Shown: positions 52,277 to 55,486 of the stretch, in pieces | How the letters are laid out: the number at the start of each line of letters is the position of its first letter | How positions within the stretch are numbered: the first letter of the stretch is position 1 | From: Candidatus Poribacteria bacterium | GTDB taxonomy: Bacteria; Poribacteria; WGA-4E; WGA-3G | Assembly: GCA_022821965.1 (NCBI GenBank) | Contig: JAJECN010000022.1 | Span: 186,001 to 250,000, forward strand | Reading direction: 5' to 3' | Length of the DNA: 64,000 nt | Notes under the pieces: generated by a model | What the model was told of the DNA's origin: nothing | What the model saw: the letters and a program-made list of their open reading frames with translations, nothing else | Databases searched by the model: none | Made by a program: the position numbers and the translations under genes

Positions 52277-53554
52277 TCAATCCCGTTCCAATGCGCGGTA
52301 TCCGATGTCATTCCGAAAATGTGCATCGGCAAATTGAATGGCAGAAACACCTTGATACGCCCGTTGAATAGCATCGTGCAATCCGCCTGCGACAGCAGTC
52401 ACACCTAATACTCTACCACCATCTGTGACGATGTTTTCACTATCTTGTCCGGTTCCGGCATGAAAAACGTTCACCCCCTCAATCGCATCGGCATCTTCAA
52501 GCCCTGTAATAACGACTCCTGTTTGGTAGGGATCAGGATACCCACCGGAAGCCATAACGACACACGCTGCAGCTTCGTCATGCCATTGCACATCAGCGGC
52601 GTGCTGTTCAAGTGTTTCATCAATACATGCGATTAGTAAAGGGACTAAGTCACTCTTGAGGCGAGGAAAGAGAACTTGTGCCTCCGGGTCTCCAAAGCGA
52701 CAGTTGAATTCCACTACTTTCGGTCCGGCATCAGTAATCATCAAGCCAACATACAACACCCCTTTGAAGGGTCTTCCAATATCTGCCATGCCTTTGACAG
52801 TCGGATAAACGATGCGCTGCATCACATCGTCGTGCAGTTTAGGTGTGATAACAGGTGCTGGTGAGTATGCGCCCATGCCACCGGTGTTCTTACCGGTATC
52901 ACCATCGTGGGACATCTTGTGGTCTTGTGAACTGACAAACGGGAGACAGTAGGTTCCATCGGTAAGCACTGTGAAGGAGGCTTCCTCACCGATGAGTTCT
53001 TCCTCAATCACGACACTATCCCCTGCGTCCCCAAATGCTTTGTCCACCAGAATCATTTTGACGGCTTGCAACGCCTCTTTGAAGGTACGTCCGGGGATGA
53101 CCCCTTTTCCTGCAGCGAGTCCATCTGCTTTGACGAAAACCGGTGCGTTGTAATCTTCAATATAGGCCATCGCTTTTTCTATATCCGTAAATGTGCGATG
53201 TGCTGCTGTAGGTATTCCATTTTTCACCATCAGCTGCTTGGCGAAATCCTTGCTTGCTTCGAGGCGTGCTGCACGCTTATCCGGTCCAAACGCTTTAAGC
53301 CCACGTTCGCGGAACGTATCAACGATTCCTTCCGCCAATGGAGCCTCCGGTCCAACAACAGTCAGTGCAATATCTTCGGATACCGCCCATTCTGCCAATT
53401 CGATAAACCGAGCTGGCATTGGAATAGATTCCGCGATTTGAGCAATGCCCGGATTACCGGGGGCGCAATATATTTTTTCGACGAGTGGGCTTTGTGCAAG
53501 TTTCCAGACGAGGGCGTGTTCACGCCCGCCCTGCCCGATAACCAGAATTTTCAT
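52277..53554 (-). CDS. purD: phosphoribosylamine-glycine ligase
   Basis: 425 residues starting at ATG 53554; a TTG three bases earlier is not used. The purine enzyme GAR synthetase, with N-terminal MKILVIGQGGREHALVWKLAQS, the ATP-grasp segments VFVKADGLAAGKGVIPG, VVIEEELIGEEASFTVLTDG and VEFNCRFGDPEAQVLFPRL. Full length. It starts only about 30 bases after the isrB gene, with no good ribosome site (AAGATCTTG), so the insertion may have replaced its leader. No other pur genes are near. Confidence 0.93.
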   Translation of the reverse strand: MKILVIGQGGREHALVWKLAQSPLVEKIYCAPGNPGIAQIAESIPMPARFIELAEWAVSEDIALTVVGPEAPLAEGIVDTFRERGLKAFGPDKRAARLEASKDFAKQLMVKNGIPTAAHRTFTDIEKAMAYIEDYNAPVFVKADGLAAGKGVIPGRTFKEALQAVKMILVDKAFGDAGDSVVIEEELIGEEASFTVLTDGTYCLPFVSSQDHKMSHDGDTGKNTGGMGAYSPAPVITPKLHDDVMQRIVYPTVKGMADIGRPFKGVLYVGLMITDAGPKVVEFNCRFGDPEAQVLFPRLKSDLVPLLIACIDETLEQHAADVQWHDEAAACVVMASGGYPDPYQTGVVITGLEDADAIEGVNVFHAGTGQDSENIVTDGGRVLGVTAVAGGLHDAIQRAYQGVSAIQFADAHFRNDIGYRALERD

Positions 53555-53583
53555 CAAGATCTTAGGGATGGAAACCTTGCGCT

Positions 53584-54606
53584 TCAGCGCGAGGAGGAAA
53601 TCCCGCTCCTATAGTTGAAATTCAGACGTGTTAGCACCTTAAAATCTGAGAGTTTCGCATTTTGGCAAAGCCGCTTACCTTCCAACGAATACAACGAAAT
53701 ACCTGCCTTGCCAAATCCACTGATACGCGTCAAACCATATTTGACATGTCTAACGAGTGTGTTTTTCACCAAATTCTCGCAAGTCGTCCCACCATAGCGG
53801 GGTCTTTTTCCACCTTTCTGTGAGTTCTGACGATGCAGTTCACGTCTGACAATCGGAATCGGCGAGAGGCAGAGCAAATCTGTGTTCGCTACTGTCGGTT
53901 CACCGCCGACAGTGTGATATGCCAGACACCAACTGTCTACACAGTGGGCATCGAAGGTTTCAGAAAGTTTCTTTGAAGACTTTTTCAAACCGAGTCTCTC
54001 ACGAATCTCTTTCGTCTGCCATCCTTGGAGGGTCAATACCTCCCATCGCTTCTGAAGCTGCGTGTAGAACCATTGCTTACCAACTTCCAAAGGACTAAAG
54101 GATTGATTCCACTTTTTCGCACGTTCTATTGTTCGTGCCTTAATATCCTCAACACAAATATGTGTGATCGGAAACATTTTTGACAACCAGTCAAGAATCC
54201 GAAGTTTCCAATCCCATCTCGCACGTGTCCCGGCAGGAACTCTGTCTCTGTTCGCGAGGCGGTTGGTGCGGTTTTTGCGATTCGGGCATTTCCGAGAACG
54301 TCTGCTCCTCCGCAACTCACGCCGGTTGGCTACCTTCTTACCAACTTTACTGTGAGCATCTGCTTGAACATTGAGATAGGTGTGTGCTTCACTTTTGACA
54401 GTAAAGCCTTCTTTCTTACTGCCGGGGTCTACTCCGACGACGACCTCTTGTTTGTAGTCGTCAGATGGCTGAACATTCAGACGCACACAAAACACACCAT
54501 TTTTCCAAAAAGGTGTCGCTTTGCCTGATTTTATCCACTTCCCGGCACGCTGCGGCGTTGTCGGCATCAGTGGATTTTGGTTTTTATCAACAACTATCAC
54601 AAACAT
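53584..54606 (-). CDS. isrB: IsrB-type RNA-guided nuclease (HNH-less IscB relative)
   Basis: 340 residues starting at ATG 54606; a longer frame to 54795 only translates the candidate omega-RNA. The PLMP domain is at residues 1-43 (NPLMPTTPQRAGKW). RuvC-I is VVVGVDPGSKKEG (Asp60). The arginine-rich bridge helix is RRELRRSRRSRKCPNRKNR, RuvC-II THICVEDIKA, RuvC-III FDAHCVDSWCLAYH. No HNH cassette with its CxxC lies between RuvC-II and III, which is what separates IsrB from IscB. Known IsrB proteins nick the non-target strand with an omega-RNA. No transposase gene is seen. Confidence 0.8.
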   Translation of the reverse strand: MFVIVVDKNQNPLMPTTPQRAGKWIKSGKATPFWKNGVFCVRLNVQPSDDYKQEVVVGVDPGSKKEGFTVKSEAHTYLNVQADAHSKVGKKVANRRELRRSRRSRKCPNRKNRTNRLANRDRVPAGTRARWDWKLRILDWLSKMFPITHICVEDIKARTIERAKKWNQSFSPLEVGKQWFYTQLQKRWEVLTLQGWQTKEIRERLGLKKSSKKLSETFDAHCVDSWCLAYHTVGGEPTVANTDLLCLSPIPIVRRELHRQNSQKGGKRPRYGGTTCENLVKNTLVRHVKYGLTRISGFGKAGISLYSLEGKRLCQNAKLSDFKVLTRLNFNYRSGISSSR

Positions 54607-54832
54607 AGTTTGTAAGTTCCCTTTCGGGTTGTATATTTCCCCATCCAGATCACAGTATCCGAGAGGAATCAGACTTGGGGAGCATCCGAAACATCGTGCT
54701 AACTGCCACGCCAAGATACCGCGATATTTTACTGTAGAAAACTGTTTCGTCCTATGCAGGGAACGTTTGGCTACGCTTTGCACAGGTTTCCTCACCCTTT
54801 AGGGTGAGGTAGTTGACTTACATATCCTTTTT
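54607..54832 (-). ncRNA. candidate omega-RNA of isrB
   Basis: IscB and IsrB omega-RNAs lie just upstream of the protein gene with the guide at their 5' end. Here a perfect hairpin CCTCACCC-TTTA-GGGTGAGG (54790-54809) and several other short stems (for instance CCCGAAAGGG before the ATG) lie between a promoter at 54867-54839 and the start codon. With initiation near 54832, the guide would be about 54831-54811. The extent and guide boundaries are inference. Confidence 0.55.
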
Positions 54833-54838
54833 GATTGT

Positions 54839-54867
54839 ATTGTATCAGAATATGTTCGGAAAATCAA
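54839..54867 (-). promoter_or_regulatory. putative promoter of the omega-RNA and isrB
   Basis: On the minus strand, TTGATT (54867-54862), 17 bases, TACAAT (54844-54839). It would start transcription near 54832, at the 5' edge of the conserved RNA hairpins. Confidence 0.5.
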
Positions 54868-54932: not shown

Positions 54933-55078
54933 ATGCCTAACACACATCCACGAGAAATAGAAATCATCCACGAGAAATAGAAATCTTCCACACTCAAGAT
55001 AGACAAGAACCTTTCACTGAATGGTTGAGATCACTTCTCGATCAAAAGACGCGAGGTAGAATACGAAAACGACTTGAA
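54933..55078 (+). pseudogene. broken HigB/RelE-type toxin
   Basis: ATG 54933 reads MPNTHPREIEI, then a stop. In another frame the toxin start continues as FHTQDRQEPFTEWL and SLLDQKTRGRIRKRLE, the typical N-terminus of the phage Gp49-like RelE/HigB toxin family. A 20-bp perfect tandem duplication at 54946-54985 (ATCCACGAGAAATAGAAATC twice) causes the shift; removing one copy restores MPNTHPREIEIFHTQ. The remaining two thirds of the toxin (the ELR...GPGYRVYF end) are absent, and the frame runs straight into the antitoxin. Confidence 0.75.
54946..54985 (+). repeat. 20-bp perfect tandem duplication in the toxin remnant
   Basis: Units 54946-54965 and 54966-54985 are identical. Twenty is not a multiple of three, so the second copy breaks the toxin frame. 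Confidence 0.9.
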
Positions 55079-55486
55079 ATGAGAAAATATCGAACATGGC
55101 ACGAGGTCTTAATGGAAGATCTGGCAGACCCGGCAGAAGCAATTAGTTATCTTGACGTGTCCCTGGAGGAATATCAGATGGATGGAGATACACCTTTCTT
55201 TCTGAAAGGGATTCGGAATGTTGTTGAAGCACAGGGCGGAGTTGCCGCGATCGCCAAACGAGCTGCGATGTCGCCAGAAACGCTGTCGAAAATCCTCTCA
55301 AGTGAAAAAGTTCCGTATCTTGATACTTTTGCAACTATTCTCAATGCGCTGGGGTGCCGGCTTTCAATCGAACCGCTAAAAGATGACGAGGATGCTACCT
55401 CTGATACCGAACCTGTTGCCGAGGTTGAAAGCACGAAATTTGGAGATTCACAAACACAATTGACTAAATCAGACGCTCCTCAATAG
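55079..55486 (+). CDS. HigA-like antitoxin (addiction-module antidote)
   Basis: 135 residues from ATG 55079; the frame is also open upstream to 55025 through the toxin remnant, so a fused 153-residue product is possible. It has EDLADPAEAISYLDVSLEEY, then a helix-turn-helix GVAAIAKRAAMSPETLSKIL and FATILNALGCRLSI, the layout of the COG3636-type antidotes that pair with Gp49-like toxins. The C-terminal tail of about 35 residues is acidic and disordered. Since the toxin is broken, the antitoxin may persist as a repressor or protect against related toxins. Confidence 0.78.
   Translation: MRKYRTWHEVLMEDLADPAEAISYLDVSLEEYQMDGDTPFFLKGIRNVVEAQGGVAAIAKRAAMSPETLSKILSSEKVPYLDTFATILNALGCRLSIEPLKDDEDATSDTEPVAEVESTKFGDSQTQLTKSDAPQ

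What the first reader, a model, noticed from the sequence alone, without database searches (positions are those of the whole stretch)
53584..54867. IsrB locus with candidate omega-RNA and predicted guide
PLMP domain, bridge helix and RuvC I-III without HNH mark an IsrB. A promoter with exact 17-base spacing (TTGATT/TACAAT) points to a transcript starting near 54832, followed by a perfect CCTCACCC hairpin and other stems. This would place the guide at about 54831-54811, read from flanking DNA. IsrB is rarer than IscB or TnpB, and a single short protein with intact catalytic residues is useful for comparison.
Basis: partly seen in the sequence, partly recalled or inferred. Interest (0 to 1): 0.75.

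Follow-up and report, generated by a model that had tools for sequence, protein, structure and literature searches.

The report
IsrB transposon at purD start codon
A small RNA-guided nickase transposon has inserted exactly between a purine gene's ribosome-binding site and its start codon, and dozens of its relatives have done the same at other genes, so the host's promoter and leader probably supply the guide RNA.

Summary
The IsrB is real: 340 aa, 53584-54606(-), PLMP/RRXRR/RuvC I-III, no HNH; its best solved relative is DtIsrB. It lies in a 1263-bp non-autonomous IS200/IS605-type element, 53555-54817(-), whose ends I fixed from other copies and empty sites. The omega-RNA is real: 53 homologues show strong covariation, including both pseudoknots known from IsrB. 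The guide therefore ends at 54818, not 54811; with a start near 54832 only about 15 nt of it would be transcribed. The element is followed by ATGA, the purD start codon plus A, which fits the published NTGA motif of IsrB. This is not a one-off: of 85 Poribacterial insertions, 48 abut a start codon, 33 of these with a Shine-Dalgarno in the left flank (11 of 166 neighbouring NTGA sites); 35 of the other 37 are in sense with host genes. Cyanobacterial copies share the start-codon bias, not the sense bias; half carry their own Shine-Dalgarno. I infer that these elements live in host transcription units because the guide, outside the left end, needs a host promoter. Mobility, transcription and nicking are not shown.

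The parts
53555..54817 (-). IsrB element (1263 bp), from GTCAACTACC to ...GATCTTG
   Evidence: Homology between copies starts and stops here; empty sites at purD and, for the sister copy L002, at a second gene show insertion without duplication or loss
54607..54817 (-). omega-RNA scaffold region, left end to isrB start codon
   Evidence: RNAalifold and pair counts on 53 homologues: 93.4% of cells paired, covariation 0.311 vs 0.132 shuffled, 0/500
54790..54809 (-). Left-end subterminal hairpin CCTCACCC-TAAA-GGGTGAGG (first stem-loop of the RNA; also the DNA hairpin of the transposon end)
   Evidence: 6 of 8 pairs with compensatory changes
53584..54606 (-). isrB CDS, 340 aa; D60, E153, H221 and D224 kept in relatives
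   Evidence: PF14239, 8dmb, invariant columns
53575..53594 (-). Right-end subterminal hairpin CCTCGCGC-TGAA-GCGCAAGG (isrB stop in its loop), inside the stem GGGAT 53604-53600 / ATCCC 53569-53565
   Evidence: Read; same layout in the aligned copies; weak matches to Rfam HgcC and sot0042, both below their gathering scores
53551..53554 (-). ATGA: target tetranucleotide kept from the host, predicted TAM (NTGA), and start codon of purD plus A
   Evidence: Present in every empty purD site printed; NTGA TAM of DtIsrB from PMC9581776
54818..54837 (-). Predicted 20-nt guide CAATCAAAAAGGATATGTAA (about 54832-54818 if transcription starts at the purD promoter)
   Evidence: Flank directly 5' of the left end; 1-2 mismatches to empty purD sites followed by ATGA in several relatives; inference
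54839..54867 (-). Host purD promoter (TTGATT, 17 nt, TACAAT)
   Evidence: Conserved at uninterrupted purD loci
54825..54829 (-). Native Shine-Dalgarno of purD (AAGGA), now about 1.26 kb from the start codon
   Evidence: Conserved in empty sites
52277..53554 (-). purD (phosphoribosylamine-glycine ligase), start codon directly after the element
   Evidence: Three GARS Pfam domains, GARS_N from the first residue tested

Best explanation
A non-autonomous IS200/IS605-type element carrying isrB and its omega-RNA. A Y1 transposase acting in trans joins it next to the tetranucleotide TCAT on one strand, which reads ATGA on the isrB strand (inferred). At purD this put the element between the 5' leader and the start codon. 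The host purD promoter then reads leader, omega-RNA, isrB and purD as one unit (inferred). The last 15-20 nt of leader become the guide, and the empty site presents exactly that sequence followed by an NTGA motif. IsrB would nick uninterrupted copies of the site, after excision or on another chromosome, and favour repair from the occupied copy, while the occupied locus is spared because the guide there is followed by GTCA instead of NTGA (inferred from work on OMEGA systems). Because the guide lies outside the left end, the element depends on host transcription, which would explain why Poribacterial copies sit in sense in host transcription units, most often exactly at start codons.
For: Protein: PF14239 E 6.4e-32, DtIsrB 8dmb E 1.1e-31, catalytic D60, E153, H221, D224 invariant in 26 aligned copies. 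Ends and target. RNA: compensatory changes in 29 pairs, adaptor-type pseudoknot (column 48 with 117: GC 27, AU 23, GU 3) and nexus-type pseudoknot (column 147 with 182: AU 26, UA 19). Start codons: 48 of 85 insertions vs 10% of control RTGA sites; start plus Shine-Dalgarno 33 of 85 vs 11 of 166 nearest NTGA sites, p 8e-10. Sense orientation of the rest: 35 of 37 vs 55-62% in controls, p 3e-7 to 8e-6. Self-protection: guide plus NTGA occurs nowhere else in this assembly with up to 3 mismatches; the one match is the locus itself with GTCA. Transposase: Y1 transposases in 19 of 20 genus genomes, and left ends of some tnpA elements resemble the isrB right end read on the other strand.
Against: No transcript, RNP, nicking or transposition was observed. 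With the promoter's expected start near 54832 the guide would be about 15 nt, shorter than the 20 nt used for DtIsrB. The tnpA elements compared are flanked by TTAY rather than TCAT, so the actual partner transposase was not found. In Cyanobacteria the non-start insertions show no sense bias (10 same, 8 opposite). The start-codon excess could reflect retention by selection rather than target choice.
Confidence: 0.8

Rival explanations
1. The start-codon pattern is only the frequency of ATGA: the transposase takes any NTGA, and what survives is what does not break a gene, so start codons and gene ends dominate.
For: The target is ATGA in 73 of 85, and a start codon followed by A is ATGA; insertions inside genes are few; some junctions use the TGA stop of the upstream gene.
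Against: Matched neighbouring NTGA sites on the same strand are start codons with a Shine-Dalgarno in 11 of 166, against 33 of 85 insertions; among loosely defined non-coding sites starts are 65% of insertions vs 40% of controls; splitting a gene from its Shine-Dalgarno is not an obviously harmless place to land.
Confidence: 0.35
2. The promoter TTGATT/TACAAT belongs to the element and evolved to express the omega-RNA.
For: It lies at the right distance upstream of the left end.
Against: It is outside the element and present at uninterrupted purD loci of 31 other genomes; other copies have unrelated flanks there.
Confidence: 0.02
3. A decayed, immobile copy: the protein and RNA are remnants.
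For: The assembly's best Y1 transposase hit is partial (82 of 121 positions, L172); one internally deleted copy exists in the same genome (L004).
Against: Open frame, conserved catalytic residues, intact omega-RNA pairs and both ends; close relatives (97% and 94% protein identity) sit at other sites in two other genomes, so the lineage moved fairly recently.
Confidence: 0.15
4. The element was domesticated as a regulator of purD, using its guide to act on purD leaders.
For: The guide equals the purD leader and the element sits in the purD transcription unit.
Against: Unique to this genome among the purD loci compared; copies at many unrelated genes; catalytic residues intact.
Confidence: 0.04

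Closest known systems
DtIsrB of Desulfovirgula thermocuniculi (PDB 8dmb; PMC9581776)
   Same: PLMP, RRXRR bridge-helix region, split RuvC without HNH; RNA upstream of the gene with adaptor-type and nexus-type pseudoknots; NTGA next to the target
   Different: RNA region 211 nt instead of a 262-nt scaffold; lies at a start codon (not examined for DtIsrB); activity not tested
Other IsrB orthologues with NTG or NTGG motifs (CwIsrB, DsIsrB, CsIsrB, K2IsrB, BbIsrB; PMC9581776)
   Same: The measured motif contains NTG, i.e. a possible start codon, as do the junctions seen here
   Different: The passages I read do not discuss insertion at start codons
IS200/IS605 elements with TnpA/TnpB
   Same: Subterminal hairpins, insertion next to a tetranucleotide without target duplication; ends resemble tnpA elements of the same genus on the other strand
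   Different: No tnpA here; guide at the 5' end and outside the left end, so dependent on host transcription, whereas TnpB guides lie 3' (general knowledge)
IscB / HEARO (RF02033)
   Same: Related nuclease and 5' guide RNA
   Different: No HNH here; no HEARO match listed up to E 5

Membership tests
IsrB (OMEGA nickase) | PLMP domain and RRXRR region | tested here: met
   PF14239 E 6.4e-32; L13 M14 P15 invariant
IsrB (OMEGA nickase) | RuvC I-III catalytic residues | tested here: met
   D60, E153, H221, D224 invariant in 26 sequences; aligned to 8dmb
IsrB (OMEGA nickase) | No HNH domain | tested here: met
   No HNH family in Pfam or NCBIfam results; alignment to IsrB is continuous through RuvC II-III
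IsrB (OMEGA nickase) | TAM-interacting C-terminal domain | tested here: inconclusive
   Alignment to 8dmb ends at residue 276; AlphaFold model too poor (mean pLDDT 49)
IsrB (OMEGA nickase) | Upstream omega-RNA with two pseudoknots | tested here: met
   Covariation
IsrB (OMEGA nickase) | NTG(A/G) target-adjacent motif | tested here: met
   ATGA at both sets of empty sites examined; NTGA in 85 insertions, though NTGA helped to anchor the ends. In vitro specificity not testable here
IsrB (OMEGA nickase) | RNA-guided nicking | not testable with these tools
   Needs biochemistry
IS200/IS605 element | Subterminal hairpins, tetranucleotide target, no target duplication | tested here: met
IS200/IS605 element | Encodes a Y1 transposase | tested here: not met
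   The element holds only isrB; so it is called a non-autonomous element of IS200/IS605 type, not a complete IS
HEARO RNA RF02033 | Match to the family model | tested here: not met
   No match at gathering score or up to E 5

The most novel reading that the evidence does not exclude
IsrB elements are start-codon-targeting transposons: the NTG(A/G) motif read by nuclease and transposase is the start codon, the element lands between Shine-Dalgarno and ATG, takes the host promoter and leader as the source of its guide RNA, and in some cyanobacterial lineages hands the gene a new Shine-Dalgarno from its own right end (AAGGAG 6-7 nt before the ATG).
Probability: 0.55. Interest if true: 0.78.

Novelty: new variant of a known kind. 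Interest (0 to 1): 0.62.

Why it matters
A 5'-guided OMEGA element has its guide outside its own DNA, so how it gets a guide transcribed wherever it lands is an open point. The data give a concrete, testable answer: it persists in sense inside host transcription units, usually at start codons, and its recognition motif is the start codon. That would also explain the NTG-type motifs measured for several IsrBs, tie target choice of the transposase to guide supply, and give a natural set of dozens of guide-target pairs for choosing active enzymes.

Tried and rejected
Rfam at gathering score and E up to 5: no omega-RNA family; HgcC (E 0.0014) and sot0042 (0.14) are weak, sub-threshold matches to the right-end hairpin region. 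The 403-aa GTG start: rejected, the conserved start is ATG 54606. Promoter as part of the element: rejected by empty sites. AlphaFold from 26 close relatives: too poor to use, so no fold search. tnpA next to isrB at L159/L116: not a tnpA-isrB element but an isrB copy inserted at the start codon of a tnpA of another element. Element-borne Shine-Dalgarno in Poribacteria: not supported (mean duplex energy -1.3 vs -2.2 kcal/mol in controls); it holds for about half of the cyanobacterial junctions (25 of 49). Annotated cyanobacterial plasmids: in L268 a regulator is annotated to start at the junction, in L267 the annotated start is a few nt off in another frame. Sense bias in Cyanobacteria: not seen. 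No paper that I found in the held library reports start-codon insertion for IsrB/IscB; founding papers of the field are not held.

Full report
What is there. The minus strand of 53584-54606 encodes a 340-aa IsrB. It matches PF14239 RRXRR and, of all solved chains, DtIsrB best (8dmb, E 1.1e-31); NCBIfam's IscB model matches only its first half, below cut-off. RuvC residues D60, E153, H221 and D224 are invariant among 26 aligned copies, and there is no HNH. By its relatives the genome is a Candidatus Poribacteria MAG (record titles).

Family. The assembly holds three full-length copies and fragments. In 146 relatives searched 47 have matches, with up to 14 in one genome. The nearest copies (97% and 94%) lie at other sites in other genomes.

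Ends. DNA homology between copies begins at or near GTCAACTACC (54817) and ends at the junction NTGA. Thirty-one distinct uninterrupted purD loci show what the site looked like before: promoter TTGATT-17-TA(C/T)AAT, a Shine-Dalgarno AAAGGA, a few bases, then ATGAAAATT, the start of purD (32 rows, one locus twice). In the window the element stands directly before that ATG. A second case in the same genome, L002, gives the same result: CGCAGGAGCGTTAT|ATGAAAATTG in L203, with 1269 bp inserted at the bar, no duplication and no loss. So the host keeps ATGA, the element is 53555-54817, and on the other strand the insertion is next to TCAT.

RNA. I aligned 53 non-redundant regions from left end to isrB start. 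The consensus structure, with a 5' stem and two pseudoknots added by hand, has 93.4% of cells paired, 29 pairs with double changes and a covariation score of 0.311 against 0.132 in shuffles (0 of 500); slid by one column only 39-43% of cells pair. The two pseudoknots correspond to the adaptor and nexus pseudoknots described for DtIsrB: GCCA/ACCA with UGGC/UGGU, and CCCCA/CCCCU with UGGGG/AGGGG. Because I placed them by eye, the count for them tests the same data that suggested them; the double changes are nevertheless direct.

Guide and promoter. If it is used, transcription starts near 54832 and the RNA carries about 15 nt of purD leader before the fixed end at 54817. The guide matches empty purD sites of several relatives with one or two mismatches, followed by ATGA. 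In its own genome the guide occurs once, at the element, followed by GTCA.

Where the family sits. Of 91 distinct copies, 85 gave two ends with NTGA at the junction (73 ATGA, 7 GTGA, 5 TTGA; NTGA was part of the end model). 48 of 85 stand directly before an open frame of at least 60 codons with an in-frame stop less than 40 codons upstream, against 10.3% of 5532 control RTGA sites; a Shine-Dalgarno-like tetramer lies in the left flank of 38 of 85 against 10.7%. A matched control, the nearest NTGA on the same strand on either side, gives 11 of 166 for both criteria together against 33 of 85 (p 8e-10). A looser non-coding control lowers the contrast to 65% against 40%. Of the 37 that are not at start codons, 35 are in sense with the gene they sit in or precede, against 55-62% of control sites; some use the TGA stop codon of the upstream gene. 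These gene calls come from open frames, not annotation, apart from the purD and L002 cases tested with orthologues. Copies in related genomes are not fully independent; I removed identical flanks only.

A second phylum. In a group that I take for Cyanobacteria (the annotated plasmid hits of the same IsrB are cyanobacterial), 27 of 49 junctions open a frame of at least 100 codons against 22% of controls (p 2e-6); by my reading of the translations two are MetH-like and DapB-like starts. Families there end in CAAGGAGTTTTTG|ATGA or AAAGGAGATTTTG|ATGA, so the element brings a Shine-Dalgarno of its own (25 of 49 with duplex energy of -5 or lower). Poribacterial right ends do not. The sense bias is absent there. 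In these calls junctions were found with a motif list that includes the NTGA, and without left ends, so they are weaker evidence than the Poribacterial set.

Mobilisation. The isrB elements lack tnpA. Y1 transposases occur in 19 of 20 genus genomes. The left end of several tnpA elements, TTAT|CAAATCTTCCGC...CCCAATCCTTTAGGTTTGGG, resembles the isrB right end read on the opposite strand, TCAT|CTAATCTTCGGG...CCCAATCCTTTAGGTTTGGG, which suggests trans-mobilisation with isrB facing against the transposase's strand. The flank TTAY differs from TCAT, so the exact partner is unknown.

How it works, shown and inferred. Shown: protein family, RNA conservation, exact ends, empty sites, target motif, placement statistics. 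Inferred: transcription through the left end from a host promoter, guide length, nicking of empty sites, repair from the occupied copy, mobilisation in trans. How purD is translated now is open: its Shine-Dalgarno is 1.26 kb away and the nearest stop codon, that of isrB, is 29 nt upstream, so translational coupling is possible.

Novelty. By membership the element is an ordinary IsrB. What I could not find described is that IsrB insertions favour start codons and, in Poribacteria, the sense orientation. Published motifs NTGA, NTG and NTGG all contain a possible start codon, which fits. The key founding papers are not in the held library, so priority cannot be judged.

Noticed in passing
L159/L116 (G017:C2, around 220754-222209): An isrB copy has inserted exactly at the start codon of tnpA in a tnpA-tnpB element: one RNA-guided transposon inside another.
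   Followed up: partly
L004 (G000:C9:48401-51487): Internally deleted derivative: two isrB element stretches (93-96% identity) joined, still with the right end and ATGA.
   Followed up: no
L248-L251, L257 (G146): IscB-like copies with HNH-like motifs whose right ends read CATTTTAG|ATGG: again NTG at the junction, with ATGG in place of ATGA; some open long frames.
   Followed up: partly
window 55025-55486: Small addiction-module antidote-like gene (PF21716, E 5.6e-9) beside purD, with about nine matches in this genome and many in each genus genome.
   Followed up: partly
window 54945-54995: Short tandem duplication (gatttctatttctcgtggatg) in the spacer upstream of the purD promoter.
   Followed up: no
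L005, L006 (G000:C29 and C60, first bases): Two contigs begin inside an isrB right end, so the assembly breaks at these repeats and the copy number is a lower bound.
   Followed up: no
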